Of a stretch of DNA of 64,000 bases, positions 12,795 through 61,859 are shown one piece after another. Within the stretch, counting starts at the first letter, position 1. Each line of letters opens with the position of its first letter. The stretch is from Qipengyuania sp. HL-TH1 (GTDB lineage: Bacteria; Pseudomonadota; Alphaproteobacteria; Sphingomonadales; Sphingomonadaceae), in contig NZ_CP142675.1 in NCBI RefSeq assembly GCF_036365825.1, forward strand, positions 124,001 through 188,000, written 5' to 3'. The notes beneath the pieces were generated by a model that was not told the DNA's origin, ran no database searches, and was given only the letters and a program-made list of their open reading frames with translations. The position numbers and the translations under genes are program-made.

Positions 12795-12823
12795 AAAGGG
12801 CTCCCGGATCCCGGGAGCCCTTT
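12795..12823 (+). terminator. Intrinsic terminator of tol-pal
   Basis: A perfect 13-bp stem, AAAGGGCTCCCGG (12795-12807) with its complement at 12811-12823, and a 3-nt loop, 8 bp after the pal stop. The U tract is short (TTTC). The stem is symmetric, so it may also serve the small minus-strand gene that ends at 12849. Confidence 0.9.
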
Positions 12824-12848
12824 CAAGCCTGCAATGTGCGGGCGATGC

Positions 12849-13010
12849 CTATTGCGTGGCGGTAAGGCTCACCAGCGGCGCCTGGGCGGCCATCTGGTCG
12901 GCAGTGTCCGCATGGAGCCCGCCCCGTCCTGCGATCAGCACGAAGACCGCCATCGCGAGGATCGCGGCGGTTGCGGACAGGCACAGCTGTTTGCTCATGG
13001 TCGGTTTCAT
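12849..13010 (-). CDS. Small secreted or membrane protein, 53 aa
   Basis: Starts MKPTMSKQLCLSATAAILAMAVFVLIAG, a basic N-terminus with one hydrophobic helix, followed by a polar tail ending PLVSLTATQ. AGGAAG lies 8 nt before the ATG at 13010, which favours a real gene over a chance frame and over the ATG at 13052. Convergent with pal across the shared terminator. Function not recognised; it could be a single-pass membrane peptide or a small exported protein. Confidence 0.5.
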   Translation of the reverse strand: MKPTMSKQLCLSATAAILAMAVFVLIAGRGGLHADTADQMAAQAPLVSLTATQ

Positions 13011-13152
13011 CGGTCGGCTTCCTAGGGCGAAAATATTAAGCATTGCTTGCACTGCAACATTTCAATTTGAAACTGGTTCCTGAGCGCTTGCACCTTTCGC
13101 CTATCCTCCTAGATTGACGCCATGCTTACCCGAAAAATGATTGTCCCGGCGC

Positions 13153-13686: not shown

Positions 13687-13698
13687 CCGCCAAGGCGG

Positions 13699-14490: not shown

Positions 14491-14500
14491 GCTCGCCTCC

Positions 14501-16689: not shown

Positions 16690-16696
16690 CGGCGAA

Positions 16697-16793
16697 CCTC
16701 CTTCCTGATCAACGCTCCCAGGAAGGCGGGAGCCAAGTCGGATGGGCCGGGGCGCCCGTTCCTAACCTCCGCAGGAACGCTTCTCCACCGGCC
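16697..16793 (-). promoter_or_regulatory. Structured mRNA leader with a predicted pseudoknot over the Shine-Dalgarno
   Basis: Read on the minus strand. GGCCGG (16793-16788) can pair with CCGGCC (16750-16745), enclosing a 7-bp hairpin CGTTCCT/AGGAACG (16779-16773 with 16763-16757). Downstream, GCTCCC (16733-16728) pairs with GGGAGC (16719-16714). Its loop bases CCTTCCT (16726-16720) pair with AGGAAGG (16706-16700), part of the Shine-Dalgarno, giving an H-type pseudoknot geometry. This could be a metabolite- or translation-controlled switch. It does not match SAM-II or other SAM riboswitch consensus sequences I remember. The rest of the gap up to 17014 shows nothing I can name. Confidence 0.4.
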
Positions 16794-17014
16794 GCCACTA
16801 TTGGGCATTCCATATGGTGGACCGAAGTTGGTTTCAACTGCGACGATCCCCACAGGATGGAACGCATGGAACACGGTCCCGATGCAAAAACGCGCGGTCC
16901 GCCAATAAGTCATGGCAATAGGGGCGGAAATGCGATGCACCGGGCATGCGGCGGGCTCTAGCGCGCAGGGGCCAAGGCAGGAAATCTCGCAGGCCCGCGC
17001 CGCGCGTCATCGCG

Positions 17015-18424: not shown

Positions 18425-18508
18425 GTGCTGCGATCCCCCCTTGGCGCGAACTGCTAACAGCGGCGCGCGGGCGGGGCAACGCGCCAGGCGCATGGATGCC
18501 CGATACGA

Positions 18509-18536
18509 AAAGGGCGGCCCCGAAGCGCCGCCCTTT
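18509..18536 (-). terminator. Intrinsic terminator of infC
   Basis: AAAGGGCGG at 18509-18517 pairs with CCGCCCTTT at 18528-18536, a 9-bp stem with a 10-nt loop. On the minus strand the stem is followed by TTTTCG, giving a short U tract. It separates infC from the DASS transporter gene. Confidence 0.8.
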
Positions 18537-18559
18537 CGCAATGCAGTGTGATGCGCGCC

Positions 18560-19102
18560 TTACTTGGGCGCGAGCACCATGATCATCTGGCGCCCTTCGA
18601 GGCGCGGGAAGGCTTCGACCTTGGCGATTTCCTCGACATCGTCGCGGACGCGGTTGAGAAGATCCATGCCGAGCTGCTGGTGCGCCATTTCGCGGCCGCG
18701 AAACCGCAGCGTGCACTTCACCTTGTCGCCGTTCTCGAGGAACTTGACGACATTGCGCATCTTCACCTCGTAATCGTGGGTGTCGATGTTCGGGCGCATC
18801 TTGACCTCTTTGATTTCCTGGGTCTTCTGCGTCTTGCGGGCGAGGTTGGCTTTCTTCTGCGCCTCGTAGCGGTGCTTGCCGACATCGAGGAACTTGCACA
18901 CCGGCGGGTCCGCATTGGGGGACACTTCGACGAGGTTGAGACCAAGTTCATTGGCCTGCTCGACCGCTTCGCGGGTGAACATAACGCCGATGTTTTCGCC
19001 TTCGTGGTCGATCACACGGACTTTCGGCACATTGATCATGTTATCGTAGCGCGGGCCGCTTTTCACGGGCATTTGCATGCTGCGCCGGGGTGGACGGGCT
19101 AT
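18560..19102 (-). CDS. infC: Translation initiation factor IF-3, non-canonical ATA start
   Basis: 180 residues. IF-3 binds the 30S subunit and enforces start-codon and initiator-tRNA selection. The N-domain begins [28 protein letters not shown] and the C-domain includes [22 protein letters not shown] and [15 protein letters not shown]. Family alignment from memory puts the start at ATA (19102), preceded by AAAGGAGAG at ideal spacing. infC genes are known for rare start codons such as AUU that allow IF-3 to repress its own translation. The first conventional ATGs (19078 and 19072) would trim the usual basic N-terminus and have no good ribosome site. Confidence 0.93.
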
Positions 19103-19233
19103 GGGGCACTCTCCTTTGGTGGCCGTATTCGGAACTGGTTGCGGTATTCGGAAAGCCAGCATGTAGGCATTGTTCCGGGGATTCGGAAGTGTGTTATGCG
19201 AATGGGGCGCATATTTGCGCGCTGTTGTTGCCC

Positions 19234-49684: not shown

Positions 49685-51100
49685 CTAGCCGGATTGGACG
49701 CGCTGCTTTTCCAGTTTCCGGTAGATCGTCGACGGGTTGACCGCCAATTCCTTGGCGGCGCGGGTGACATTGCCGCCGTGTCGCTTGAGTGCCGCCTCGA
49801 TCGCGAGGTGCTCGATCTGGGCCAGGGTCATGCCCTCGAAGGCCAGTTCGGTGTGCGGGATGACGGGTGACGGCGCGGGCGTGCCCGAAGGCTCGGTAAA
49901 GGCAGGCTTGAACGAGGGGGGCGGCAAGGTTTCGGGCATCGCAGCCGGGCCGCTGGGAATCGAGATCTCGATCTGATCGCCTTCGCCGATCACCACCGAC
50001 CGCCGCAGGGCGTTCTGCAGCTCGCGCACATTGCCCGGCCAGGAATGGGCGCGGATTTTCGCCCGGCTCGCCGCGCTGAGCTGGAGCCCGGGGCGGCGTT
50101 CTTCCTGCGCGATCGATTCGGTCAGCCGGTCGGCCAGTAGGACGATGTCGTCGCCGCGATCTCGGAGCGGAGGCAGGTGGATCGGGATGACATTGAGGCG
50201 ATAGAGCAGGTCTTCGCGAAAGCGCCCCTCGGCGACTTCGCGCAAGGGATCGCGATTGGTGGCGCAGACTATGCGCACATCGACGGGTTCGGCTTGGGCC
50301 GATCCGACCCGCTGGATCATCCCCGTCTGGATGAACCGTAGCAATTTGACCTGGAGCTTGAGCTCCATCTCGCAAATCTCGTCGAGGAACAGCGTTCCGC
50401 CATCCGCAGCCTTGGCCGCGCCGATCCGGTTCTCGATCGCTCCGGTGAAGGCGCCTTTGACATGGCCGAACAGCTCGCTCTCGAGCAGGTTTTCGGGAAT
50501 GGCACCGCAATTGATCGCGACGAAAGCCTTGTTCCGGCGGCGCGATTCCGCGTGCAGCGCCTCGGCGGTCACTTCCTTGCCCGTCCCGCTTTCGCCGGTG
50601 ACGAAGACGCTCGCGCGCGAATCGGCGACCTGTTCGATCGTGCGGAACACGGCGCGCATGACGGGCGACTGGCCGATAAAGCCATGGAAGCGTGTGCCGT
50701 CCTCGACCGGCTTGATGACGGCCTTTGCCGGTGCGGTTTTCGATTGTTCGACCGCGGCCCGGATCGTCGCCAGCAGGCGGGTCCCCGCAACCGGCTTGAC
50801 GAGGAAATCGAAGGCGCCGAGCCGCATGGCGGCGATCGCGCGCGACAGCGAACCATCGGCAGTGATGACGACAAAGGCGGGTGACGTCTCGTCGCGTTGC
50901 TCGAGCAGCGAGAGACCATCCCCGTCGGGCAGTTGCAGATCGAGCAGTGCAGCCGAAAACCGCGTGTTCGCCAGCGCATCGCGCGCTTCGGCAAGTGTGG
51001 CGGCAAGCGCCACTTCGTACCCCGCCTCTTCCAATTGGGCGGCAAAGCCGAGGGCGAGCGAGGCGCTGTCCTCGATGATCAGAATGGCGGGTTTCGACAT
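49685..51100 (-). CDS. Sigma-54-dependent response regulator (LuxO/NtrC-like)
   Basis: 471 residues: receiver (about 5-120, phospho-acceptor Asp54 in ALLDLQLPDG), AAA+ domain (about 140-375) with Walker A GESGTGKE and the sigma-54-contact loop GAFTGA, and a C-terminal Fis-type helix-turn-helix (NVTRAAKELAVNPSTIYRKLEKQ). It would activate RNA polymerase-sigma-54 from upstream sites when phosphorylated. It lies 2 bp after the H-NOX gene in one operon. The overall architecture equals LuxO. Seven LuxO-like boxes lie in three nearby promoter regions, including its own. Confidence 0.93.
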   Translation of the reverse strand: MSKPAILIIEDSASLALGFAAQLEEAGYEVALAATLAEARDALANTRFSAALLDLQLPDGDGLSLLEQRDETSPAFVVITADGSLSRAIAAMRLGAFDFLVKPVAGTRLLATIRAAVEQSKTAPAKAVIKPVEDGTRFHGFIGQSPVMRAVFRTIEQVADSRASVFVTGESGTGKEVTAEALHAESRRRNKAFVAINCGAIPENLLESELFGHVKGAFTGAIENRIGAAKAADGGTLFLDEICEMELKLQVKLLRFIQTGMIQRVGSAQAEPVDVRIVCATNRDPLREVAEGRFREDLLYRLNVIPIHLPPLRDRGDDIVLLADRLTESIAQEERRPGLQLSAASRAKIRAHSWPGNVRELQNALRRSVVIGEGDQIEISIPSGPAAMPETLPPPSFKPAFTEPSGTPAPSPVIPHTELAFEGMTLAQIEHLAIEAALKRHGGNVTRAAKELAVNPSTIYRKLEKQRVQSG

Positions 51101-51102
51101 AA

Positions 51103-51636
51103 TTATCCCGTCAGTGCGAATTCGGCGCGCGAGCCATCGTCATTTGCGCCCACCCAGTTGAGCGCGCGGTGGTCGCCGAAATGGTTCATTGCGCCGGCCA
51201 CCAGCCCATGGGCGATATGCGCAAAGGGGCGGTGCGAGGCATATTCCACGCGCAATACGTCGCCTTCGTCATGGACGGTAACCTGCGGCGGCTGCGCATC
51301 GGGATAGAGGATCCTGACCTCTTCGTGGATGTGATCCCCGACATGCGACAGCAGTTCCTCTGCGCTGGCATAGCGGCCGACGATATCGCCATAGAGCACG
51401 GTGAAACGCTCGAAGAGAAAGGCGCCGAACTGGTGGCACAGATCGGCAAATTCGGCCCCCGTCTCGCGCGAGGCGGCTTCGACCACGCGGACGGCTTCCT
51501 GCCACGGATATTGGCCGACGCGGGTATAGGCACCGCCATGCGGGAGGCCGGCATCGGCCAACACCTTCTCGGCGAGTTCCGGCCCGCCGGCGCGATCGAG
51601 AAAACCGACCAGTTCCGAAAAGATAATGCCTTTCAC
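51103..51636 (-). CDS. H-NOX (heme nitric oxide/oxygen binding) domain protein
   Basis: 177-residue stand-alone H-NOX. The heme-propionate motif YxSxR is present as YASHR (132-136) and the proximal heme ligand is probably His104 in DHIHEEVRILYPDAQPP. H-NOX proteins bind NO (and sometimes O2) and modulate partner histidine kinases or cyclic-di-GMP enzymes; in Vibrio an H-NOX feeds a kinase that signals to LuxU/LuxO. The GTG start at 51636 follows CGGAG by 6 nt; the frame is open further upstream but without family similarity. First gene of an operon with the sigma-54 activator. Confidence 0.9.
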   Translation of the reverse strand: MKGIIFSELVGFLDRAGGPELAEKVLADAGLPHGGAYTRVGQYPWQEAVRVVEAASRETGAEFADLCHQFGAFLFERFTVLYGDIVGRYASAEELLSHVGDHIHEEVRILYPDAQPPQVTVHDEGDVLRVEYASHRPFAHIAHGLVAGAMNHFGDHRALNWVGANDDGSRAEFALTG

Positions 51637-51677
51637 CGTAATCTCCGAATGCTGTGCTGCGATGTGAGTGCATCGAT

Positions 51678-51691
51678 GCAAAGGCTGTGCC
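51678..51691 (-). promoter_or_regulatory. Sigma-54 promoter of the H-NOX/activator operon
   Basis: On the minus strand the sequence CCGGCACAGCCTTTGCATC has GG at 51691-51690 and GC at 51679-51678 with exactly 10 bp between, matching the -24/-12 consensus (TGGCAC-N5-TTGCA). Transcription would start near 51666, giving a leader of about 30 nt before the GTG. Confidence 0.7.
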
Positions 51692-51754
51692 GGAATGAGG
51701 ACAGGCGTATCGGGCGATGACGGCGTCATGATTGCCGTAATATGCAGCATTCCC

Positions 51755-51789
51755 TTGCAATTTGCAAAAGTCACTCTCGCATATTGCAA
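51755..51789. promoter_or_regulatory. Two LuxO-type enhancer boxes upstream of H-NOX
   Basis: TTGCA-ATT-TGCAA at 51755-51767 is a perfect match to the TTGCA-N3-TGCAA type box. TCGCA-TAT-TGCAA at 51777-51789 is a near match. Centres are 22 bp apart, two helical turns, and lie about 95-117 bp upstream of the predicted start point, a normal distance for a sigma-54 activator. These imply autoregulation of the operon. Confidence 0.7.
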
Positions 51790-51922
51790 CGATGTTTTGG
51801 CGATCTGGCTGTTCTGGAGGGTTCGCGATGCAGCACATCGCTTGATCCTCGCGGCGCTTTGCGCTTTGGCGGGCGCCGAGTGCATGACAGCCTCTTGGCT
51901 GACCGGGTAATCCGAAAGATTT

Positions 51923-51956
51923 GGTGGCCCGCACTGCGCTTGCAGTGCGGACCACC
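51923..51956 (-). terminator. Terminator of the hfaABD operon
   Basis: A 34-nt hairpin 10 bp after the hfaD stop. GGTGG and CCGCACTGC (51923-51937) pair with GCAGTGCGG and CCACC (51942-51956) around a GCTT loop with a single mismatch. On the minus strand AAATCTTT follows, a weak U tract. Confidence 0.8.
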
Positions 51957-51966
51957 CGGGGGGAAG

Positions 51967-52995
51967 CTATTCGACGTTGATGCTGACACTGTTGCCGATA
52001 GCGGCCGCGGTCGCGGCGGCGTTCGTGCTGGCCGCAATGTTGGCAGTGACCTTGGCGATCTGACCGGCACCGTTCCACTGGTTCAGGGAGCTGGAAACAT
52101 TGCCGGCAATACCGCTGTCGAGGCTGGTCAGGGCGTAGCTGTTGCCGATCGACGCCGCAGTCGCGGTGTAATCGACGGTGGATGCTATCATGCCCGTCAG
52201 ATCGGCGATCATCGTGCCGGAATTGCTCTGGGTTGCGGTCAGCTTGCTGCCGCCGGGCATTTCCACGGCCAGGGAATTGCCGATCGATGCTGCCGTGCTC
52301 GTGGCCTCGGCGACCATGTTCTGGATGGTAACCAGATTCGAAGTCTGACCGCCAAGATTGTTCTGATCGATCGCCAGGTCGAGGAGCGCGCCGTCGGCGT
52401 TGAACGATCCGGTGTTCCCGATCGAAGCGGCGGTGTCGGTCACTTCGCTGACGGCGTTATAGACGGTCGCAACCGAACTGGTGCCGTAGCCTTGGTTGAT
52501 CTGGGCCAGATCCGCCACGACATTCGCAGCCGCATCGAGCGCATAGCTGTTGCCGATGCTCGCCGCGGTTGCATTCACGCTGGCAACCGAGTTTGCCGTA
52601 GCGCTGAGGATTGAATCCTGAGTGGCGGAATTGGACTGGTCCGTGACATAATCGGCGGTCCGGGCCGTGGTGCCGACGAGACTTTCGAACGCGCTGACCA
52701 GTTCCGGGCCGCCAAGCGTCTCGAGGGCAGTCAGGATCGATCCGTCGAGCAGCTGGAAGTTGGTCCCGCCGGTCGAGCCTTCGAGCAGGCCGAGATAGAC
52801 GTCGAGCAGCTCGCCGCCGCCAACTTCGACGACGGCATCGAGAACCGACTGGTCACCGAGGAGCGCGCCCGTCGAAAGATCGACATCGACTGCAACCAGC
52901 GGGTCGGGTTCGGTCGGCAGCGAGACTTGTGCGGTTGCAGGGGCTGCGGCCATGGCGAGCAGGCCCGCCGTAGTCATCAGGTAAAACTTCGTCAT
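51967..52995 (-). CDS. hfaD: Repetitive secreted adhesin, HfaD-like
   Basis: 342 residues with a signal peptide (MTKFYLMTTAGLLAMAAAPATA). After about 110 residues come five repeats of about 45 residues. Each begins with a Q/N-rich segment (DQSNS, INQGYG, DQNNLG, TQSNSG, NQWNGA) and ends TAASIGNS or close (IGN at 147, 192, 238, 283, 333). The pattern suggests a stacked beta-solenoid or curli-like amyloid fold. The position after a CsgG-type pore gene and an HfaA-like gene matches Caulobacter hfaABD, whose products anchor the holdfast. Identity as HfaD rests mainly on position. Confidence 0.7.
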   Translation of the reverse strand: MTKFYLMTTAGLLAMAAAPATAQVSLPTEPDPLVAVDVDLSTGALLGDQSVLDAVVEVGGGELLDVYLGLLEGSTGGTNFQLLDGSILTALETLGGPELVSAFESLVGTTARTADYVTDQSNSATQDSILSATANSVASVNATAASIGNSYALDAAANVVADLAQINQGYGTSSVATVYNAVSEVTDTAASIGNTGSFNADGALLDLAIDQNNLGGQTSNLVTIQNMVAEATSTAASIGNSLAVEMPGGSKLTATQSNSGTMIADLTGMIASTVDYTATAASIGNSYALTSLDSGIAGNVSSSLNQWNGAGQIAKVTANIAASTNAAATAAAIGNSVSINVE

Positions 52996-52997
52996 TT

Positions 52998-53879
52998 TCA
53001 GTCTCCTTCAAATTGAGTTTGCGGGCTCGCCGCTTGTTCTACGGCGTAGCTCACCGATTGAACGTTGGTTGGACAGCGGGGCGCGTCGGCGCCCCTTTGT
53101 TCGCGCATCAGGTCAATCACCGCCTTTTCGATGATCGCCCTGATCGCTCCATGCACCGGCTCCTGGCGGCGGCGTCCGACGCCGAGATCCAGGGTGGTAT
53201 TGCCGATGAATTCGAAGATTCCGGCGCGGATTTCGCGGCCGCGGATTTGCTTTTGCAGGCTGGCGACGTTGACGACCCGCAGGCTGCGCGCATCGATCAG
53301 GCGGAGGTCCACACCGACCGACATGACATAGGAACGGGCTCCGCCGCCCACCGGCCCGATCGAGGCTTCGGCCACGTCGCTGCGAATATTGAAATCCAGT
53401 TCGGTGATGCCGCCCAGGACAATCAGATCGGCTTCCGCGATTGACCCCGAATAAATCCGGCGATAGTCGTCGGTCGGCTGGCCGTCCGGGCCGAGCAGCT
53501 TGCTGTTGGCGTAATCGAGTTCCTGCAAGGCAATCCGCAGATCCAGTCTCTCGGCAAGCGGGAAGCCTGCCTTGGCCAGCGCGGAAATCACCATGAGCGC
53601 TGCCCCTTGGGGAGCGACCGAGCCGTTCAGCCCGTCAAGCCGCCCGGTGTAATCGGCAACTTCGCCCACTGCGATCCGCGGCTGTGCGATGGCGCTTGTG
53701 TGCGAAGCCATGCAGCGCAGAATGCCCGAATAGGCGGTGTCCCCATCGGTAACGCGCGCGCCGCTGAGGGGCGTGATCCGCTGGGGCGGCGTGTCGGCAA
53801 AGCTTGCGCATCCCCCCAGGGTCAGGCCGGTCGCTGCCAGAGCGATAGCCCGATGAACGAGTTTCTTTCCCCCGATCAT
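52998..53879 (-). CDS. hfaB: HfaB, CsgG-family outer-membrane lipoprotein
   Basis: 293 residues. Lipoprotein signal with lipobox LGGC (Cys24 in TLGGCASFADTPP). The body matches the CsgG/HfaB family: PRIAVGEVADYTGRLDG, ADLIVLGGITELDFNIRSD, GGGARSYVMSVGVDLRLIDARSLRVV and a C-terminal helix. CsgG forms the nonameric curli export pore; HfaB is the Caulobacter equivalent needed to place HfaA and HfaD on the surface. GGAGGG and AAGG precede the ATG at 53879; the frame upstream to 53924 overlaps hfaA. 2 bp before hfaD. Confidence 0.88.
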   Translation of the reverse strand: MIGGKKLVHRAIALAATGLTLGGCASFADTPPQRITPLSGARVTDGDTAYSGILRCMASHTSAIAQPRIAVGEVADYTGRLDGLNGSVAPQGAALMVISALAKAGFPLAERLDLRIALQELDYANSKLLGPDGQPTDDYRRIYSGSIAEADLIVLGGITELDFNIRSDVAEASIGPVGGGARSYVMSVGVDLRLIDARSLRVVNVASLQKQIRGREIRAGIFEFIGNTTLDLGVGRRRQEPVHGAIRAIIEKAVIDLMREQRGADAPRCPTNVQSVSYAVEQAASPQTQFEGD

Positions 53880-53883
53880 AACC

Positions 53884-54216
53884 TTACCCTCCCTGTCCGA
53901 GCGAGGCAGGGCTGGCCGCGACAACGGCCTTCTGATTGCCCGAGCTGGCTTGACGCGCGTTCACGACAACCGTGTTGTTACTGCCGTGAACCGTGACGTT
54001 GACCATGTTGGCGATCGCAATCGCGCGGCTATCCTGGCGATGCCGCCGAGCGGGATTGGCCATCAGCCTGCTACCCTGTGAGGCGGAGCCCGAGATGATG
54101 ACGCGGTTGTGGTTGGCATCGCGCTCGAAGGACATCGGAGCGCTCTGCGGGCGGCCGGTGTCGGATGCCTGCGCGCCTGCCAGAGCTGCTGCGTTTGCGA
54201 GAACTAGAAAAAGCAT
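53884..54216 (-). CDS. hfaA: HfaA-like holdfast anchor protein
   Basis: 110 residues. Short signal peptide (MLFLVLANAAALAGAQA) and a beta-rich C-terminal segment NMVNVTVHGSNNTVVVNARQ with curli-like N/Q and V alternation. Size, composition and position before a CsgG-family gene match HfaA, a small amyloid-like surface protein of the Caulobacter holdfast anchor. GGGGA precedes the ATG at 54216. Preceded by a sigma-54-like promoter and enhancer boxes. Confidence 0.75.
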   Translation of the reverse strand: MLFLVLANAAALAGAQASDTGRPQSAPMSFERDANHNRVIISGSASQGSRLMANPARRHRQDSRAIAIANMVNVTVHGSNNTVVVNARQASSGNQKAVVAASPASLGQGG

Positions 54217-54251
54217 GTGTTGTCCCCATTCGAAGTGTTCGGGACTTTGCT

Positions 54252-54269
54252 TTTCACGACCCGTGCCAA
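54252..54269 (-). promoter_or_regulatory. Sigma-54-like promoter of hfaABD
   Basis: Minus-strand TTTGGCACGGGTCGTGAAA has a perfect -24 element (GG at 54267-54266) and the correct 10-bp spacing, but the -12 dinucleotide is GA (54255-54254) instead of GC. The same variant occurs at 56879. Start point would be near 54242, about 26 nt before hfaA. Confidence 0.6.
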
Positions 54270-54342
54270 AGTCTAAAATGATTGCGAATCATAGGCTTAA
54301 TGGCGGCGCCTCGGCGACTGATCGCATTCCGCACCTCAAGCT

Positions 54343-54385
54343 TTGCAAAATGCGAGAGGCATGCACCGCAGATTGCAAAACGCGC
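54343..54385. promoter_or_regulatory. Two LuxO-type enhancer boxes upstream of hfaA
   Basis: TTGCA-AAA-TGCGA (54343-54355) and TTGCA-AAA-CGCGC (54373-54385, degenerate right half). A further half-site TTGCA is at 54406. They lie about 100-140 bp upstream of the predicted hfaA start point. The rest of the gap to 54622, beyond the GT4 gene stop, shows only GC-rich sequence without a gene. Confidence 0.6.
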
Positions 54386-54622
54386 TTCGTGCCAACCGCC
54401 CGAAATTGCAGCCTGCCGGAGACACAGTCAGATTATCAGTTGATTGCCGCGATCGGCGCGGGGTTCCGGTTCCAGGCCACCCTTGTTCGATGAGCCCCGC
54501 GCCGATTCCAGCCGGGTGCGCGCCGCGCTTGGCCTTTTGCGTCGCCCCCAAAGGGAAACCGCCCCGCCCCCATCCGCATAGCGGAGGGAACGAGGCGGCC
54601 CTGCGGCACCTGGGGTCGCAAT

Positions 54623-55654
54623 TCAGGCGCCGGCAGCCATGGCCGGTTGCACACCGGCTTTCTTTCGGAGGGGTTCGGCACGGCGTAAAACCGCCTGCCA
54701 ACCCGTGATGATTTCATCGTGCTGCTGGATGACCCCGGCGCGTGCGGCCCGGCCCATCGTCGGCAAGTCCGCACCTTTCAGCCGGATGATCGCGCAGGCG
54801 ATCTCGGCGGCATTGCGCATTGGTGCGGCAACCCCGCCGCCGCTGCGAACCTGTTCGGGCAGGCCGTCGATATCGGCGACCAGCACCGGGCGGCCCGCCA
54901 TGCGGGCTTCGGTCGCGACCAGGCCGAAGGCTTCGTAGCGCGACGGAACGACCACCGCGGAACAGGCCGCAAGCCGAGCGTCGATCGCATTGGTGGCAGG
55001 CAGCAGCCGAACGTTGTCACGCTCACTGGCGAGTTCCACCAGCCGTTTCACTTCGGGGCCCGAACCGGCCAGCGTCAGCGTGACCTCGTCGGCACGGAAA
55101 GAGCCCATGGCTTCGATCAGTGCGGCGAAGTTCTTCTCCGGGGCCAGCCGCCCATAGGCGAGCAGGCGAAGCGGGCCGCCGCGCGGCTCGAGATCGGGGA
55201 CCTTGTACAGATCGTCGCGGCCGCTCCACGGATGGATCGTGTGCAGCTTTCTAGAAGGAACGCCTGCCTCGGCAAGCCACCGGCGCTGCGCGCCCGACAT
55301 GGCAATCACTTCATCGACCGGCCGTGCGGCAGTCTGCAGCAGCGTGCGGAACCGCCCCGGGGAGGACACCGCCTCCGCTTCGAAAGCGCGAGTGTGGGAA
55401 TAATCGACTTGGACGATCCGGGCATGCGGGTTCTTGAGCCTGAGCGCCGCCAGATACGGCAGCCGGCCCCATGAGGGCGGCACATGGATGACAATAAGCT
55501 CGCTATCGAGCCGCACGGCGCCGGCCGGTCCGCGGCCCATGCGGATCGCCCGCGACTCGGCCTCGCGCGTCATGCGCGGGTCGTCGAACAGCGATAGCGC
55601 GCGGGTGACCACGCCTATGTCGACATCGTCAAGGAGATGGGTAATCCGGATCAT
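54623..55654 (-). CDS. Glycosyltransferase family 4 (GT-B fold)
   Basis: 343 residues. The N-terminal half binds acceptor; the C-terminal half has the GT4 signature region LRLLAYGRLAPEKNFAALIEAM, VTLTLAGSGPEVKRLVELA and AVVVPSRYEAFGLVATEARMAGRPVL (the EX7E motif). It probably transfers a sugar from a nucleotide sugar to a polysaccharide or lipid-linked acceptor. Start overlaps the GT2 stop (ATGA), so the two work as a pair. The location in the holdfast cluster suggests attachment polysaccharide. Confidence 0.9.
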   Translation of the reverse strand: MIRITHLLDDVDIGVVTRALSLFDDPRMTREAESRAIRMGRGPAGAVRLDSELIVIHVPPSWGRLPYLAALRLKNPHARIVQVDYSHTRAFEAEAVSSPGRFRTLLQTAARPVDEVIAMSGAQRRWLAEAGVPSRKLHTIHPWSGRDDLYKVPDLEPRGGPLRLLAYGRLAPEKNFAALIEAMGSFRADEVTLTLAGSGPEVKRLVELASERDNVRLLPATNAIDARLAACSAVVVPSRYEAFGLVATEARMAGRPVLVADIDGLPEQVRSGGGVAAPMRNAAEIACAIIRLKGADLPTMGRAARAGVIQQHDEIITGWQAVLRRAEPLRKKAGVQPAMAAGA

Positions 55655-56637
55655 GCCGTCGCCTTGAGATAGGGGCGCGCGAGGCGGCGGAAACGTTCGG
55701 GGCCGGTCAGCCGGGCCAGCTTGATGGCGCCCCAGGTCACCGTCGATTTGACCGGCTCCTCGAGAAATATCCGCGGGGCGAGGCTGGCGGCGCGGCTGAT
55801 CAGATCGTTGGCCAGATCTGCATTGCCGAGCTGGACCGACCGGCGCGCAAGGTAGCGCAGCTGGTAAGCGCGGGCCGCGTCGCCGTGTTCCGCCACCAGT
55901 TCGGGCGCATTGTCACGCGCGATGTCGAGCATGCGCGACCAGCTAAGGTACTGCTTGACGACATTGGCGGAAAGCGCGCGGCCAATGATCCGGCAATCGG
56001 TCAGCAACCCTTCGATGCCTTCGAAGCTGACCTCATGCAGCGAGGCGAGGCGCACCCATAACTCGATATCTTCCGACTGGCGGAAGCTTTCGTCGAACCA
56101 GCAGGTCCGGGTCCGCTCCTGCGGGTGCGGAAATGCCGCGCGGTCGAGTGCTGTCCGGCGCAGAACCGGCGCGCTGCAATTGCCGATCGGATTGCGGCAC
56201 AGAATGTCGCCAGCGGCGACATCGGTCAGCTTGGGCCGCATCGCGGCCGAGATGACCGCGCCGTGCTCGTCGATCATCCGCGAGCCGGCATAGCTCACCC
56301 CGATATGCGGGTTCGCCTGCAGGTGGTCGAAGTGCAGCTTCAGCTTGTCCTCGTGCCAGCGGTCATCGGGATCGAGCAGCGCGATATAGGGCGCCTGCGC
56401 TTCGGCGATCCCGGTATTGCGCGCGCCGGCGAGGCCGCGATTTTCCTGCGAAACGATGCGGATACGCGGATCGTCGAAGCTGCGCGCGAGATCCATCGAT
56501 CCATCTTGGCCGCCATCGTCGACGACGATCAGTTCGAAGTCCTCGAAGGTCTGGTCGAGGACCGACTCAATGGCTTCTGCGATATAGGCCTCGACATTGT
56601 AGACGGGCATGACGACAGACATGCGGGGGGCGGTCAT
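55651..56637 (-). CDS. Glycosyltransferase family 2 (GT-A fold)
   Basis: 328 residues. SVVMPVYNVEAYIAEAIESVLDQTFEDFELIVVDDG is the nucleotide-sugar binding start of GT2, and ALLDPDDRW supplies the DxD metal site. FRQSEDIELWVRLA is the catalytic ED region. The C-terminal 100 residues are helical. No membrane helices, so it is cytosolic or peripheral. AAGGAG precedes the ATG at 56637; ATG at 56670 is possible. First gene of the pair; its promoter region lies about 230 bp upstream. Confidence 0.9.
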   Translation of the reverse strand: MTAPRMSVVMPVYNVEAYIAEAIESVLDQTFEDFELIVVDDGGQDGSMDLARSFDDPRIRIVSQENRGLAGARNTGIAEAQAPYIALLDPDDRWHEDKLKLHFDHLQANPHIGVSYAGSRMIDEHGAVISAAMRPKLTDVAAGDILCRNPIGNCSAPVLRRTALDRAAFPHPQERTRTCWFDESFRQSEDIELWVRLASLHEVSFEGIEGLLTDCRIIGRALSANVVKQYLSWSRMLDIARDNAPELVAEHGDAARAYQLRYLARRSVQLGNADLANDLISRAASLAPRIFLEEPVKSTVTWGAIKLARLTGPERFRRLARPYLKATA

Positions 56638-56877
56638 GGCTGGTCTCCTTGAAACTGGATCAGGCGACAATCGCGCCGCGGGTGCGGGCCCGGACGGCGC
56701 TGCTCGGCGGGTACCCGGCGAGCGTTTCGTGTATGCCGCGCAGCGGATGGCCGCGTGCCTTCGCTACGGCCCGGATTGCGCGCGGAGACGCCTTGGTGGG
56801 TCTGCGAGGCGGCGAGTGGGTGAAAGGGAGGGCGAAAAGAAGGGATGGGGGCCTCGGCGTATGGTTACCGAGAATTA

Positions 56878-56894
56878 TTCAAGGTCCGTGCCAA
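56878..56894 (-). promoter_or_regulatory. Sigma-54-like promoter of the GT2-GT4 operon
   Basis: Minus-strand TTGGCACGGACCTTGAATA has GG at 56892-56891 and GA at 56880-56879, 10 bp apart. It shares TTTGGCACGG with the hfaA promoter, including the GA variant at -12. Start point near 56867, leaving an untranslated leader of about 230 nt in which I see no gene. Confidence 0.6.
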
Positions 56895-56945
56895 ACCTAA
56901 AAATCACGCAATTCCGCGGTTCTGGAACGTTGCTCAAGAACAGTT

Positions 56946-56995
56946 TCGCAATTTGCGAGGATGCAAATTGCATGAGTGACCGCTGCAAATTGCGA
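56946..56995. promoter_or_regulatory. Three LuxO-type enhancer boxes upstream of the GT2-GT4 operon
   Basis: TCGCA-ATT-TGCGA (56946-56958), ATGCA-AAT-TGCAT (56961-56973) and CTGCA-AAT-TGCGA (56983-56995). Centres are 15 and 22 bp apart and 85-122 bp upstream of the predicted start point. The rest of the gap (56996-57145) is AT-richer and carries no gene. Confidence 0.7.
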
Positions 56996-57145
56996 AACGC
57001 CACAATTAACAAGCGTCGTCGTCTTGCGGGCCAGAAAAACATCTTCAATTCAGATGGACGGAGCGTCTTTGCATGACGTTCGCCGCTACGGGGACAATCA
57101 ATTCCACGGACCCTCCATGCCCGCGGTGACCGGCGGGCGCGGCGC

Positions 57146-58807
57146 CTACTGATCCCTCGCGATCAACGCTTCGTAGAGGTCGTCGACTGCCAGCAGGCAG
57201 GCGGCGACCGCTTCGCGGAAGGCTTCGATCGATGCCTCGCCTAGCGCGCGGGCCTCGCGGTAATGCGCCAGCTCTTCGACGATCCCGACCGCCCCGATAT
57301 TGAGCGACACCCCGGTCAGCGCATGCGCCGCGCGGGACAGGTCTTCCTCGTCATCGGCCTCGACCGCGGTCAGCACTTCGCCCGCATATTTGGTGATGTC
57401 CTTCTTCGCGGCATCGCGCATCCGGTCGCGATAGGCGTCGGGCAGATCGGTGAAGGTCCGGCGGAAGAGGTCGTGATCGAACCGCGCCTGGTTCTGGCGA
57501 ACGTCGCGGCCCGAGATCAGCGCGGTGCGGATGGCGGTTTCGAGCGCTTCCTTCTTGACCGGCTTGGCCATGCAGGCGGTCATCCCCGCCGACAGCAACC
57601 GTTCGCGTTCCGATTGCAGACTATGCGCGGTCACTCCGATGATCGGGGTGCGTGCGGCCGGCCCGCTGAGCCCGCGGATCGCCTGCGTGGCCTGCTCCCC
57701 ATTCATGATCGGCATCATCACATCCATCAGGACGAGATCGAAACTCTGGCGCCTGATCGCCTCGACCGCGGCGGCGCCGTTTTCAACCGAGGTGACGAGG
57801 CAACCCAGATCGACGAGCATGCGCTCTGCGACATAGCGATTGCTCTCGGTATCTTCGGCCAGCAGGATGCGCGGCTGGTCGGGCAGCGTCGAGGCGGTTT
57901 CCGGTGTGGGCGTGCCGACCCCGCTGGCATAGGCGACCGGTTCCGCCTCGCCATCCGAGGCCGCTTCTTCGATCAGCCGGGATGCGAGTTCGCCGAGCTG
58001 CTCGGCCGCCTCGCGCGCGACCGACAGATCCTTCTCGCCGTCCATGCGGACCTTCGAGCGCAGCAGTTCTAGCCCGCCGCTCAACGCCGCAAGCGGCGTG
58101 CGAATGGCATGCGCCATTTCGGAAATGAACCGGTTGCGCGCGCTGAGCGCCTCTTCCACCCGATCCTTCGCACCGGCTAGCTCCAGCTGGAGGTGCGCAA
58201 GCTCGCGCACCCTTCGCTCGGCTCGCAATTGCAGCGCCCGCACACCGCGCTCGTTCTGGCGTTCTTCGGTGATGTCGCGCATCGTCGCCATCAGATGGCC
58301 GGGACGATCCTCGGTGCCGGTCTCGCGCGTGATCGACCATCTGAGCCAGCGGGTCTCCCCCGTGTCCTGCCGGACGATGCGATGTTCATAGGCATGCGCC
58401 ACCCCTGGCTCGGCCTCGCTGAAGAACGCCAGCCCCACACGCATGATCCGGTCGCGATCGAGCGGATGGAGCGTCGCGGCGAGCTTCTCGATCGTGGGTT
58501 CCTCGCCATCGGCCAGGCCCAGGATCGGTCCGGCACTTTCGGACATTGTGAACCCGCGCTCGCGTTCGCCATACAGCGTGGCCATCCGGATGGTCGACAG
58601 GGCGCCGAGCAGGAGCGCGCTTTCGATCTCGAGCTTTCGCGCCAGTTCGCTCTGGCGCAGGCTGAGGTCCTGATTGGCGCGAAACAGCTCCTTCATCCGC
58701 TTTTCGAGCGCGGCTTCGGCACCCCTTAGCGCACGTTCGCTACGCTCCAGCCGCGTGGCAAGGATCTCGGCGCGGCGCTCGGCGGGGATGTCGTCCATCT
58801 TATCCAT
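57146..58807 (-). CDS. Phosphorelay protein: PAS-DHp-receiver-Hpt without an ATPase domain
   Basis: 553 residues. Coiled N-terminus (about 10-65), PAS-like domain (about 85-185), DHp helix with His233 in EMAHAIRTPLAALSGG, receiver (about 313-430, acceptor Asp362 in LMDVMMP) and a C-terminal Hpt domain with His495 in AAHALTGVSLNIGA. Only about 30 residues join DHp to receiver, so the HATPase domain expected there is missing and the protein cannot phosphorylate itself. Start at 58807 overlaps the upstream kinase stop and has GAGG before it; ATG at 58798 is possible. Likely passes phosphate from that kinase to the sigma-54 activator. Confidence 0.88.
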   Translation of the reverse strand: MDKMDDIPAERRAEILATRLERSERALRGAEAALEKRMKELFRANQDLSLRQSELARKLEIESALLLGALSTIRMATLYGERERGFTMSESAGPILGLADGEEPTIEKLAATLHPLDRDRIMRVGLAFFSEAEPGVAHAYEHRIVRQDTGETRWLRWSITRETGTEDRPGHLMATMRDITEERQNERGVRALQLRAERRVRELAHLQLELAGAKDRVEEALSARNRFISEMAHAIRTPLAALSGGLELLRSKVRMDGEKDLSVAREAAEQLGELASRLIEEAASDGEAEPVAYASGVGTPTPETASTLPDQPRILLAEDTESNRYVAERMLVDLGCLVTSVENGAAAVEAIRRQSFDLVLMDVMMPIMNGEQATQAIRGLSGPAARTPIIGVTAHSLQSERERLLSAGMTACMAKPVKKEALETAIRTALISGRDVRQNQARFDHDLFRRTFTDLPDAYRDRMRDAAKKDITKYAGEVLTAVEADDEEDLSRAAHALTGVSLNIGAVGIVEELAHYREARALGEASIEAFREAVAACLLAVDDLYEALIARDQ

Positions 58808-61800
58808 CGGCGACCTCGTCGAGGATGCGGGGGAGCATGTCGAGCAAATCCGCCTCACTGGCCACGATGTGCTTGCCGTCGCGTGCGCTCTCCGCCGCTT
58901 CGGCGAGCTGGATGCTCCATTCGGCACCGCTTTGGGCGATGAATTCCGCATCGTCGCTCACTACGATATTGACGGTAGCCCCGGCATCATCCGAAGCAGA
59001 GTCGATAACCGTGAACCCCTCCGCATGCGCGATGACTTCGACGCGCACAGCGAGCGAAGCGCGCGCCAGCCTGATCGCGATAGTGCCGCGGGCAGGGGCT
59101 TGTTCCTCCTCAGGCCCGGCGGTTTGCAGGGGCAACGTCAGCGTCATCCGCGTCCCGCCGCTTGCCGAACTTTCGGCCGCAACCGTGCCGCCCATCTGCT
59201 GCGCGAGATCGCGCGTGATCGACAGGCCCAGCCCGCTGCCCGAGAACCGCCCGAGCGTATCGGGCGCGCTGCCGGAGAATGGCTCGAAGATCGTCTTCAT
59301 CCGCTCGGGATCGATCCCGCCCCCGGTATCCTCGACGCAGAATGTCCAAAGATCGGACCCGGGTTCGGGCGCGCTGAACGAGAGGGTCACCTTCCCTATC
59401 GGGGTGAACTTGATCGCATTGGAAACGAAATTGGCGAGCACCTGCTGGATACGCGCCGGCTGGCCGCAAGCCCGGCCCTCGGAACCCGCCAGCACATCGA
59501 TGGCGAGGCCCTTGCGGCGGGCCAGCGGGCGAAACAGCTCGGCCACGCGCTCGACCAGCGCGGCGGGGTTGAACTCCTCGTCCCGTGAGACCGATTGTTC
59601 GCGCTCGGAGCGGGTCCGCTGGAGCGTCGCATCGAGCGTCTTGAGCAGCGCCTCGGACGAATCCTCCACCAGCGTCAGCGCGCGGCTGCGCTCGCTTTCC
59701 GACCGTTCGCGGCGGATCTGGTCGATCAGGCCGAGAATGCCCGAAATCGGCGTGCGGATTTCGTGCGAGATGACCGCGAGGATGTCGGTTTTGGATCGCG
59801 CTTCGGCGCGGGCCTCGTCGCGCGCACGCAACAGCGCCTCGGCGGCTTTCTTCTGCTCGGTAATATCCTGTGCGATCCCGTAGAAGCCAGCCAGCTCTTC
59901 GGTATTGTCGGCATCCTGGAACACCGCCGTCCCGCGCACGACGATCGGCAGACGGTCCCCCTCGGCACCGATCGCCAGCGTTTCGAAGGAAAATTCGGTT
60001 CGCGCTTCGATCGCCGCGGCGATTTCCGCCATGGTTTCTTCGCGCTTGCTCTCATCGATCAGCGCGGCAAGCTCCGCGAGTGGGATGGTTGGCGTCTCCA
60101 CGCCCAGCTTTTCCCGCAGCCAGCCCGAAAGCGACAGTTCCATAGTGTGCGGATCGAGTGCGAAATGCCCCGCCTGTGCGCTCGACTGCGCCAGTTCGAG
60201 ATAGAGCAGGTTTTCCTCTATCGCGCGCTGCGCGGTGTGCTTTTCGGTAATGTCATGGCCGATATACGCCGTCCCGAACGGCGCGCCGAGGTGATCCTCG
60301 AGCGAGATCAGGATTTCCTCGAGCCAGACTTCGCGCCCGTCGGCCAGCTTGCGCGCGATGATCCGCGGCTGCGGTCCGGGCCCGGCGGGATGGCCGGTCG
60401 GAGGCGCGGACTCGGCCGACAGGCCCCATTCGCTCGGCAGCTTGACCAGTTCCTTTTCGCCGAACAAATCGAGCGCGCCCTTGCTCGCCCGGATCAGCTG
60501 TCCCTGGTCGTCGAACAGCACCATCGCATAGCGTGCCGCCGCATTGACCAGCACGTCGAACGAATGCTGCTCGCGCGAGCGCGCCGTGGCCAGCCGGTCT
60601 TCCATCTTTTCGAAGGCATGCTCGAGCTGGCGGATCTCGTCCCTGGTCCCCGCATCCAGCGCCACGCCTTCGGTGGCCGAGACCCGGTCGATCCGCGTCG
60701 CAAGCCGGGCGATCCGCGAGGCGACGGTCCGGTGGAAGATCGCCGACAGCACGAGGCCGAGCGCAAGCGCCCCGGTCAACGCGATAAGGATGACCCGCTG
60801 CGCCAGCGACCATGCGCGCGCGCTCAGCGCCTGTTCGGGCAGCACGGTCAGCACGTACCAGTCGGGCGCCTGCAACTCGCGCGCCGAGACATAGGCATCG
60901 AGCGGCTGCGCGAAGACCGTCTGGTCGTCGATCCCCGCGTTTACATAATCCCAGATGGCGCGCAGCAGGGGCTCTTCCGAAGTCGCGAGGTCGACATTCG
61001 CCTCGAGCCGCCGACTGTCGTCCCCGGCCACGCCCGAGTGATGGATCAGCTTGCCGTCCCGACTGACGATGATGGTGAAGGCGTCCTCGGGCGGGGGCGT
61101 CAACCGCTTGGTGAACTGGTCCAGCGGGATGCTAATACCCCAGGCGCCGACATGCCGATCATCGACGCGGATGGGCAGCATGCACCCGGTGGTCCAATTG
61201 TCGCCCGTCTCGTCATACAGCGGGCGTTGCAGGCTGGTGCAGCGCAGCATCCCGGCGGGGTTCTCTGCCGGCGAGGTAATCCGGCTGAATTCAGCCTCCT
61301 GGAAATCGAAATCGGCCGGGGCTGTGCGATAGAAGGACAATTCGTCGGGCCGCTGCGGCGCGTAGATCAGCAGGTCGTTGGCGGGCGAGAAGAAATAGAG
61401 GCTTTCGACATCGCTCGGCAGGCCATTGCTCATCTGTCGCAGCGTGTCGAAGGCGGCGAGGATGGCCGCGCGGCGGTCATCGTCCGGTTGGGGCGGGGCG
61501 AGAAAGCCGCCGATGCCGCGCAGCTGGATCGCTCCTGCGGATGCGCGGCCTTCCCACAAATCGTCACGGCTATGGAAAGCCCCGTCTGTCGCAGGCGCGA
61601 AGATATCGCCGAGCGTAGTCGGGCTGCGCTGCTCCAGCTTGCGCGCCATGGTGGCGACCGCCTTTTCCTCGGTCTCGGCGATCAGCGAGATCTCGCGGCG
61701 GAGCGTATCGGCAGCGGCGGCATTGGCGATGTCGAGTTCGCGCAGTGCATTGGCGCGATCGTCGTCGATGCTGCCGACATAGATGCTCCAGGCCATGGCA

Positions 61801-61859
61801 CCGATGACCAGCGCGACGATCGGCAGCGCGATGAACAAGCCTCTGAGCGAGAGCGACAT
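58800..61859 (-). CDS. Membrane sensor histidine kinase with dCache-like and PAS domains
   Basis: 1019 residues. Membrane helix at about 7-29, a large periplasmic dCache-like sensor (about 30-350), second helix (about 355-378), HAMP (about 380-430), two PAS domains (about 440-545 and 560-675), HisKA with His699 (VISHEIRTPISGILG) and HATPase (about 795-920, GLGLSITRDL). The last 90 residues resemble a receiver fold but lack a recognisable acceptor pocket (IVVSDDAEFIAQ). It therefore has the kinase activity that the next gene lacks. Overlaps that gene by 8 bp. Confidence 0.88.
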   Translation of the reverse strand: MSLSLRGLFIALPIVALVIGAMAWSIYVGSIDDDRANALRELDIANAAAADTLRREISLIAETEEKAVATMARKLEQRSPTTLGDIFAPATDGAFHSRDDLWEGRASAGAIQLRGIGGFLAPPQPDDDRRAAILAAFDTLRQMSNGLPSDVESLYFFSPANDLLIYAPQRPDELSFYRTAPADFDFQEAEFSRITSPAENPAGMLRCTSLQRPLYDETGDNWTTGCMLPIRVDDRHVGAWGISIPLDQFTKRLTPPPEDAFTIIVSRDGKLIHHSGVAGDDSRRLEANVDLATSEEPLLRAIWDYVNAGIDDQTVFAQPLDAYVSARELQAPDWYVLTVLPEQALSARAWSLAQRVILIALTGALALGLVLSAIFHRTVASRIARLATRIDRVSATEGVALDAGTRDEIRQLEHAFEKMEDRLATARSREQHSFDVLVNAAARYAMVLFDDQGQLIRASKGALDLFGEKELVKLPSEWGLSAESAPPTGHPAGPGPQPRIIARKLADGREVWLEEILISLEDHLGAPFGTAYIGHDITEKHTAQRAIEENLLYLELAQSSAQAGHFALDPHTMELSLSGWLREKLGVETPTIPLAELAALIDESKREETMAEIAAAIEARTEFSFETLAIGAEGDRLPIVVRGTAVFQDADNTEELAGFYGIAQDITEQKKAAEALLRARDEARAEARSKTDILAVISHEIRTPISGILGLIDQIRRERSESERSRALTLVEDSSEALLKTLDATLQRTRSEREQSVSRDEEFNPAALVERVAELFRPLARRKGLAIDVLAGSEGRACGQPARIQQVLANFVSNAIKFTPIGKVTLSFSAPEPGSDLWTFCVEDTGGGIDPERMKTIFEPFSGSAPDTLGRFSGSGLGLSITRDLAQQMGGTVAAESSASGGTRMTLTLPLQTAGPEEEQAPARGTIAIRLARASLAVRVEVIAHAEGFTVIDSASDDAGATVNIVVSDDAEFIAQSGAEWSIQLAEAAESARDGKHIVASEADLLDMLPRILDEVADG

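What the first reader, a model, noticed from the sequence alone, without database searches (positions are those of the whole stretch)
49685..61859. A self-contained NO/envelope-sensing phosphorelay and sigma-54 regulon for surface attachment
All on one strand: a dCache/PAS kinase, a DHp-receiver-Hpt relay protein, a GT2-GT4 pair, hfaABD, and an H-NOX plus LuxO/NtrC-like activator operon. Each of the three effector or regulator units has a sigma-54-like promoter and LuxO-like enhancer boxes. The pieces form a full circuit: sensor, relay, activator, targets and feedback. The Vibrio H-NOX-kinase-LuxU-LuxO route is known; coupling it to holdfast anchor genes and a local glycosyltransferase pair in an alphaproteobacterium is, as far as I know, not described.
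Basis: partly seen in the sequence, partly recalled or inferred. Interest (0 to 1): 0.88.

Follow-up and report, generated by a model that had tools for sequence, protein, structure and literature searches.

The report
Gas-sensing switch with swapped adhesion genes
A marine bacterium carries a compact switch, probably sensing nitric oxide, that in its relatives controls a surface sugar polymer; in this lineage most of the sugar genes are gone and genes for protein surface anchors stand under the same type of on-switch.

Summary
Nine minus-strand genes (49685-61859) encode a dCache kinase, a HATPase-less DHp-REC-Hpt relay, a GT2-GT4 pair, HfaA/B/D homologues, H-NOX and a LuxO-like sigma-54 activator. 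GT2, hfaA and hnox each have a sigma-54-type promoter with TTGCA-N3-TGCAA-like boxes about 70-115 bp upstream; a matrix trained without this clade finds all three. Comparison changes the meaning. In Sphingomonadales, and in Halomonas and Salinisphaera, hnox-luxO usually sits inside a Wzx/Wzy exopolysaccharide locus with the same promoter grammar (142 pairs in 51 of 55 loci). Among loci examined, only the Qipengyuania citrea lineage (3 of 60 genus genomes) has hfaABD there. It has lost wzx, wzy, wza, the priming transferase and one GT2, leaving short fossils. So it is a syp-like EPS switch whose output was largely replaced by hfaABD. The closest known circuit is Vibrio fischeri HnoX-HahK-SypF-SypG-syp; ten searches (capped lists) showed no paper on this locus. 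Inferred, not shown: NO binding, H-NOX inhibition of the kinase, phosphotransfer order, and that hfaABD acts in adhesion here. The genome has no WecG-family match, so a canonical holdfast is doubtful.

The parts
58800..61859 (-). Membrane sensor histidine kinase, 1019 aa: dCache domain, HAMP and PAS (both just below Pfam cut-offs), HisKA (SHEIRTP at 698), HATPase with N/G1/G2 motifs; the C-terminal stretch, where relatives have REC, gives no Pfam REC or Hpt
57146..58807 (-). Relay protein, 553 aa: weak PAS, DHp (AHAIRTP), no HATPase, receiver (LMDVMMP), Hpt (AAHALTG; Pfam score below cut-off); start overlaps the kinase stop by 8 nt
56877..56893 (-). Sigma-54-type promoter of GT2-GT4: TGGCACG-N4-TTGAA, 1 mismatch
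56946..56995 (.). Three LuxO-type boxes upstream of GT2 (56946, 56961, 56983), each 2 mismatches; matrix scores 19.0, 16.7, 15.4
56699..56752 (-). Possible remnant of the lost GT2a gene; weak (18 residues, 61%, E 0.086; a longer match from the same start E 0.003)
55651..56637 (-). GT2 glycosyltransferase, 328 aa, retained from the ancestral EPS operon
54623..55654 (-). GT4 glycosyltransferase, 343 aa, overlaps GT2 by 4 nt, retained from the ancestral EPS operon
54486..54534 (+). Short fossil of wzy: 15 residues, 87% identical to Wzy 286-300 (tblastn E 0.02), supported at DNA level against four loci (E 5e-8 to 3e-4), in the orientation that wzy has in relatives
54252..54268 (-). Sigma-54-type promoter of hfaABD: TGGCACG-N4-GTGAA, 2 mismatches
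54343..54378 (.). LuxO-type boxes upstream of hfaA at 54343 (1 mismatch, score 21.2) and 54366 (2 mismatches, score 12.6), 23 bp apart; a further 2-mismatch site at 54406
53884..54216 (-). hfaA homologue, 110 aa
52998..53879 (-). hfaB homologue, CsgG-like, 293 aa; lipobox-like N-terminus read from the DNA; closest near-full-length relative outside the lineage 83% over 87% (Sphingomonas sp. 10B4)
51967..52995 (-). hfaD homologue, 342 aa, with five repeats of the TAASIGNS type
51755..51789 (.). Two LuxO-type boxes upstream of hnox, 22 bp apart: one perfect (51755), one with 1 mismatch (51777)
51676..51692 (-). Sigma-54-type promoter of hnox-luxO: CGGCACA-N4-TTGCA, 2 mismatches
51103..51636 (-). 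H-NOX, 177 aa from GTG 51636: His104, Pro117, Y132-S134-R136
49685..51100 (-). LuxO/SypG-like sigma-54 enhancer-binding response regulator, 471 aa (REC, AAA+ with GAFTGA, Fis-type HTH)

Best explanation
This is a syp-like, probably NO-gated sigma-54 switch for a surface structure. The dCache kinase senses an envelope or external ligand and donates phosphate through the relay (receiver, then Hpt) to the LuxO-like activator. Phosphorylated activator binds paired TTGCA-N3-TGCAA boxes and fires sigma-54 promoters. H-NOX, made from an autoregulated promoter together with the activator, binds NO and most likely lowers kinase output, so NO turns the structure off. In most relatives with this unit the structure is a Wzx/Wzy exopolysaccharide. 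In the Q. citrea lineage the EPS genes were deleted except GT2-GT4, and hfaABD, with a promoter of the same grammar, took their place. Shown here by sequence: gene content, conserved linkage, promoter grammar, deletion fossils, purifying selection. Inferred: NO binding, kinase inhibition, phosphotransfer order, direction of regulation, and the role of hfaABD in attachment.
For: Linkage: in a family sample H-NOX occurs in 53 of 397 genomes at E up to 1e-8. Around the 52 outside the window, a LuxO-like gene is present in 33, and at least 2 of 5 EPS genes in 28 of those 33. Among the 80 best LuxO-like loci, 25 have H-NOX, 24 of them directly adjacent, and 19 of the 25 have at least 3 of 6 EPS genes. 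Grammar: 142 sigma-54/box pairs in 51 of 55 non-redundant hnox-luxO loci, against 10 pairs in 5 loci for a half-site-swapped control and 0 for a backwards control; 78 pairs in 29 loci against a mean of 0.45 in 20 shuffles; 51 of 94 box-to-box spacings are 21-23 bp. A matrix from 135 boxes excluding this clade scores the best hfaA box 21.2 in the window and in L029, against a maximum of 14.4 in the rest of the window. Replacement: in the congener G014, Wzx residues 4-36 and then GT2a residues 254-310 lie upstream of GT2 (E 2e-5 and 1e-13); the window keeps a wzy fossil (blastn E 5e-8 to 3e-4 against four loci). The lineage nests within EPS-bearing loci. All nine genes have dN/dS 0.04-0.31 against G014. 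Precedent: V. fischeri HnoX inhibits HahK, which acts through SypF and LuxU on SypG and syp (PMC12369376, passages).
Against: hfaABD is in this locus in only three genomes (the window's, a strain of the same species, and one congener), so its place in the regulon has little phylogenetic depth. In Q. citrea H150 the hfaA boxes are weaker (12.6 and 12.1, below the background maximum of 14.4 though above the 99th percentile of 10.4; no box within 1 mismatch). The wzy fossil is short; its protein match alone (E 0.02) is no better than chance matches of other queries in the same call (E 0.017-0.06), so it rests on the DNA matches. H-NOX is linked to the activator, not directly to the kinase gene, in this lineage. 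Five of 33 hnox-luxO loci have no EPS genes nearby (two of them on contigs that end close by), 19 of 52 family H-NOX genes have no intact LuxO-like neighbour by my cut-off, and 4 of those 19 loci still carry a pair. Four of 55 hnox-luxO loci have no pair. The relay DHp has Ala after the His, where the relatives L032, L061, L062 and L068 have Glu or Asp, and its Hpt is below the Pfam cut-off. rpoN was not looked for. No expression, binding or phenotype data exist here.
Confidence: 0.72

Rival explanations
1. hfaABD is a recent insertion with its own regulation; it only happens to lie between GT4 and hnox and is not part of the LuxO-like regulon.
For: hfaB elsewhere in the family has no sigma-54/box pair nearby (0 of 8 loci). 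hfaABD is in this locus in only three genomes. The Q. citrea H150 boxes are weaker.
Against: The sigma-54 site and a box pair 23 bp apart upstream of hfaA can be seen in all three genomes while much of the intergenic region differs. Best box 21.2 in the window and G014 against a background maximum of 14.4.
Confidence: 0.17
2. A relic: EPS function is lost and the regulatory genes and GT pair are decaying leftovers with no present output.
For: wzx, wzy, wza, GT2a and the priming fusion are gone from the locus, and the fusion from the genome. Other relatives show broken copies (L203, L210). No WecG-family match in the genome.
Against: All nine genes are open and under purifying selection against G014 (dN/dS 0.04-0.31). 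Promoters and boxes are kept.
Confidence: 0.06
3. The activator is quorum- or envelope-driven and H-NOX senses something other than NO, for example redox state, or acts as a scaffold; NO has no role.
For: H-NOX is next to the activator rather than the kinase; heme-free V. cholerae H-NOX responds to oxidants in vitro (PMC8738867, section read). The kinase has its own dCache input.
Against: Heme His, Pro117 and YxSxR are present in the H-NOX of L029-L034; L035 and L036 lack the Arg and L045 lacks the His. That H-NOX of this type bind NO is established for characterised members.
Confidence: 0.2

Closest known systems
Vibrio fischeri HnoX-HahK-SypF/LuxU-SypG-syp (PMC12369376, passages; syp-type eps cluster in PMC5801674, passages)
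   Same: H-NOX, kinase, Hpt step, sigma-54 enhancer-binding response regulator and Wzx/Wzy polysaccharide locus. In V. fischeri NO-HnoX inhibits the kinase. LuxO/SypG-type upstream sites (PMC10162802, passages).
   Different: There hnoX-hahK is an operon; that it lies apart from syp is recalled. Here hnox is next to the activator, inside or beside the output genes; in this lineage the output is hfaABD plus two GTs instead of the polysaccharide.
Vibrio harveyi H-NOX-HqsK-LuxU-LuxO (PMC3759921, passages)
   Same: H-NOX, kinase, Hpt, LuxO-like activator.
   Different: That route works through quorum sensing (LuxR; Qrr RNAs recalled). Here no Qrr was sought and the boxes lie at structural genes. 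The protein falls below the LuxO equivalog cut-off (499 of 800 bits).
Caulobacter crescentus H-NOX (PMC10746521, abstract start and passages)
   Different: LuxO is not mentioned in the text (0 occurrences); no promoter-level link to hfa genes appeared in the passages.
Caulobacter crescentus HfaABD holdfast anchor (PMC6707917, passages)
   Same: HfaA, HfaB and HfaD, CsgG-like HfaB; NCBIfam matches to all three here.
   Different: All three below curated cut-offs; the genome has no WecG-family match (HfsJ type), so the polymer that the anchor would hold is unknown; different control.
Sphingomonas sp. LM7 promonan EPS (PMC11340318, abstract and passages)
   Same: Wzx/Wzy EPS pathway of a sphingomonad with a WecG-family GT.
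   Different: The terms H-NOX, two-component and sigma do not occur in its text; the ancestral locus here has a WecG-priming transferase fusion and hnox-luxO.

Membership tests
H-NOX (heme NO/O2-binding) | HNOB domain over curated cut-off | tested here: met
   93.2 bits, cut-off 25.5
H-NOX (heme NO/O2-binding) | Proximal heme His, conserved Pro, YxSxR | tested here: met
   H104, P117, Y132/S134/R136 align with solved H-NOX; motif meaning recalled
H-NOX (heme NO/O2-binding) | Binds heme and NO | not testable with these tools
   needs purified protein
LuxO (quorum-sensing equivalog) | NCBIfam NF041946 cut-off | tested here: not met
   499 bits against 800; filed as LuxO/SypG-like, not LuxO
NtrC-class sigma-54 enhancer-binding response regulator | REC Asp, AAA+ with Walker A and GAFTGA, Fis-type HTH | tested here: met
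LuxO/SypG-type regulon | TTGCA-N3-TGCAA boxes upstream of sigma-54 promoters | tested here: met
   consensus in PMC3352281 and PMC10162802; binding not tested
V. fischeri syp-type circuit | Hpt-containing relay or kinase and sigma-54 activator next to Wzx/Wzy genes | tested here: inconclusive
   met in relatives such as L031 and L061; in the window itself the Wzx/Wzy genes are gone
V. fischeri syp-type circuit | Activator phylogenetically SypG | not tested
   no SypG sequence was placed in the tree
HfaABD holdfast anchor | NCBIfam HfaA, HfaB and HfaD cut-offs | tested here: not met
   37.7/50, 238/300, 31/100 bits; homologues, not confirmed equivalogs
HfaABD holdfast anchor | Holdfast polysaccharide pathway with WecG-type GT in the genome | tested here: not met
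   PF03808: no match in the genome at E 0.001; the control rings in Caulobacter vibrioides
dCache sensor domain | Double PAS-like fold between two membrane-spanning helices | tested here: met
   model pLDDT 74.6, Foldseek and VIA matches to dCache receptors; helices flank it in the model, their membrane nature is read from sequence; no Pfam Cache match
RcsD-like HATPase-less phosphotransferase (recalled comparison) | DHp, REC and Hpt without catalytic domain | tested here: met
   32-aa linker in place of HATPase; relative L068 keeps HATPase at 5e-9; Hpt of the window's relay is below the Pfam cut-off

The most novel reading that the evidence does not exclude
A NO-gated sigma-54 regulatory chassis is retained while its output is exchanged. 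In one lineage a polysaccharide matrix was replaced by a secreted protein anchor or adhesin system (hfaABD) that came under the LuxO-type box grammar, so a sugar-based attachment programme became a protein-based one under the same signal, with fossils of the old operon still in place.
Probability: 0.45. Interest if true: 0.77.

Novelty: new variant of a known kind. Interest (0 to 1): 0.66.

Why it matters
It gives a compact, single-locus H-NOX, phosphorelay and sigma-54 switch for surface polymers, found in many Sphingomonadales and in a few Gammaproteobacteria. It makes the role of NO in attachment testable in environmental bacteria. The Q. citrea lineage offers an example, with fossils, of a regulon keeping its control logic while exchanging what it controls, and it raises the question of what HfaABD does in a genome without the usual holdfast transferase.

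Tried and rejected
Holdfast circuit by origin: rejected, because in most relatives that carry hnox-luxO the locus is an EPS locus without hfa and the genome has no WecG-family match. Genome G293 has an hfaB relative (37%) and an EPS-type hnox locus, about 1.7 Mb apart on one contig. Plasmid origin of hfaABD or hnox: plasmid searches gave only hits under 60% identity (16 records each). Wider regulon in the window's genome: one search scanned 29 own-genome loci (15 around boxes, 14 others, among them those around the two Poly_export genes and the two Bac_transf-like genes), not the whole genome; outside this locus only one weak 3-mismatch site (L146) paired with a box. Source of hfaABD: the closest near-full-length proteins are from Sphingomonas (83% over 87%, 79% over 92%; a shorter Sphingomonas entry 89% over 71%), but the family, genus and order samples gave no hit above 42% outside the lineage, so its neighbourhood there could not be read. 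HfaD structure: model unusable (mean pLDDT 35.8). dCache was not visible to Pfam nor convincingly by profile (best hits there are HAMP-region transducers; best Cache-type chains E 0.033 and 0.12), only by fold. My first sigma-54 filter tested the wrong base and was redone. The HfaD repeat search used a wrong pattern and found none; the repeats were read from the sequence. The 33-of-52 count uses 44% identity and 60% coverage for the LuxO-like gene, so L203 and L210, where it is broken, count as absent; L210 is nevertheless among the 55 loci.
Full report
1. What is there. The nine genes are on the minus strand from 61859 down to 49685. The kinase (58800-61859) has HisKA and HATPase by Pfam, with HAMP and PAS just below the cut-offs. 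Its N-terminal 430 residues, modelled with five relatives (pLDDT 74.6), match dCache sensor domains. The relay (57146-58807) has HisKA, REC and an Hpt below the Pfam cut-off, with only a 32-residue linker where a HATPase would be. GT2 and GT4 overlap by 4 nt. hfaA, hfaB and hfaD are tightly packed. H-NOX most likely begins at GTG 51636, as its relatives in the alignment begin at the matching ATG, and is followed directly by the LuxO-like activator.

2. Promoters. With the published consensuses (PMC3352281, passage; PMC10162802, passage) the window holds a sigma-54 site with at least one box within one mismatch at hnox and hfaA, against a shuffle mean of 0.015 (200 shuffles). GT2 has a one-mismatch sigma-54 site and three two-mismatch boxes, so it did not count in that test. 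A 13-bp matrix made from 135 boxes of other loci, the window's clade left out, gives 24.5 and 21.2 at hnox, 21.2 and 12.6 at hfaA, 19.0, 16.7 and 15.4 at GT2. In the rest of the window the highest score is 14.4, and the 99th percentile of the best score per 400 bp is 10.4. In Q. citrea H150 the hfaA boxes score 12.6 and 12.1, above the 99th percentile but below the maximum.

3. Relatives. In the genus, H-NOX was in 5 of 37 genomes of a first sample, the window's included. G014 has the whole cluster including hfaABD; G013, G026 and G010 have hnox, luxO, GT2 and GT4 (with kinase and relay visible in G026 and G010) but no hfa in the fetched stretch, and instead Wzx, GT2a, Wzy, a chain-length protein, Wza and, in G026 and G010, a WecG-priming transferase fusion. 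A scan for the activator in named genomes gave 80 loci, the best of a capped list; 25 have H-NOX, 24 directly adjacent, 19 with at least 3 of 6 EPS genes, 1 with hfaB (Q. citrea). They include Croceicoccus, Allopontixanthobacter, Altericroceibacterium, Aurantiacibacter and Novosphingobium, and Halomonas and Salinisphaera, whose activators branch among the sphingomonad ones, which suggests transfer. A family sample gave H-NOX in 53 of 397 genomes. I fetched the surroundings of the 52 outside the window: a LuxO-like gene in 33, at least 2 of 5 EPS genes in 28 of 33, a sigma-54/box pair in 32 of 33 and in 4 of the other 19, hfaB in 0 of 52.

4. Grammar. They hold 142 pairs in 51 loci; a half-site-swapped control gives 10 in 5 and a backwards control 0. 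The four without are L062, L068, L075 and L176. Of 94 box-to-box spacings 51 are 21-23 bp; most boxes lie 55-125 bp from the promoter. LuxO-like genes without H-NOX have far fewer pairs (9 pairs in 8 of 55 loci, shuffle mean 0.50), and hfaB loci elsewhere none (0 of 8).

5. The replacement. hfaB at 95% identity or more is in 3 of 60 genus genomes (the window's, G313, G014); 13 others have only 26-34% CsgG-like matches. G313 has a contig of the same length as Q. citrea H150, is listed as the same species as the window's genome, and its locus is L051/L150. In G014 the DNA upstream of GT2 still encodes Wzx residues 4-36 and then GT2a residues 254-310 (E 2e-5, 1e-13); in the window the GT4-hfaA gap holds 15 codons of wzy in the expected orientation. 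As a protein match that fossil is weak (E 0.02, like some chance matches of the same call), but the DNA matches wzy of four loci (E 5e-8 to 3e-4). The activator tree puts the lineage inside EPS-bearing loci (100/100 for the lineage, 99/95 for the group with L052, L031, L030 and L055). So the EPS form is ancestral and the window's form derived. The hfaA promoter points the same way as hnox, whereas the wza promoter of relatives points away from hnox, so it is not simply the old wza promoter. The closest near-full-length HfaB outside the lineage is from Sphingomonas (83% over 87%).

6. The relay. L068 keeps a recognisable HATPase in its relay (5e-9), L061 and L062 have the space but no match, and the five relays of the genus that I aligned, the window's included, have the short linker. 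In three relatives Pfam finds a REC after the kinase's HATPase (L061, L062, L068), with an Hpt over the cut-off only in L068 and one just below it in L062; the kinases of the window and of L032 show neither. The two proteins thus seem to have divided one set of functions: kinase activity in one, receiver and Hpt in the other. This is inference from architecture; Pfam found no Hpt in the L032 relay.

7. Function. Nine of nine genes show purifying selection against G014 (dN/dS 0.04-0.31). By analogy with V. fischeri, where HnoX inhibits HahK and the signal reaches SypG through the SypF Hpt or LuxU (PMC12369376, passages), NO should lower activator phosphorylation and switch the output off. That direction is not shown here. 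HfaABD in Caulobacter anchors holdfast, with HfaB resembling the curli exporter CsgG and HfaA resembling curlin (PMC6707917, passages). The window's genome has no WecG-family match and no WecG-priming fusion (only its Bac_transf half in two other genes), so what HfaABD holds or secretes here is open; a protein adhesin is one possibility.

8. Literature. Ten searches in the held open library showed no paper describing H-NOX with a LuxO-like activator in a sphingomonad EPS locus or linked to hfa genes. Two of them served other questions, and for several only the head of a longer list was shown (for instance 10 of 448, 15 of 127, 12 of 214). H-NOX and attachment are already linked in Caulobacter (PMC10746521, abstract start and passages). 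An H-NOX review that surveys gene neighbourhoods names kinases, diguanylate cyclases and other families but, in the section and legend that I read, no sigma-54 activator or EPS genes (PMC8738867). Subscription papers are mostly not in that library.

9. Verdict. New variant of a known kind.

Noticed in passing
L169 (G205) 4680-19192: In a congener, kinase-relay-hnox-luxO stands without any EPS or hfa gene in the fetched stretch, right beside flagellar genes (FlgI, FlgK, flagellin, MotA); a sigma-54/box pair only at hnox.
   Followed up: partly
L203 (G189) and L210 (G270): Broken copies of hnox and luxO with fragments of neighbouring genes (wza; in L203 also relay and kinase), suggesting repeated loss of the unit.
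   Followed up: no
L058, L059 (Halomonas), L060 (Salinisphaera): Gammaproteobacterial copies of the EPS, hnox and luxO locus, branching among sphingomonads, likely transferred.
   Followed up: partly
L073, L074: Two loci in the same activator clade with EPS genes but without H-NOX in the fetched DNA.
   Followed up: no
window 51967-52995: HfaD homologue carries five TAASIGNS-type repeats about 45-50 residues apart (read); structure model failed.
   Followed up: partly
L119:17250, L108:1107: LuxO-like loci without H-NOX (Rhizobiaceae group MAG, Ferrimonas) that still show a sigma-54/box pair.
   Followed up: no
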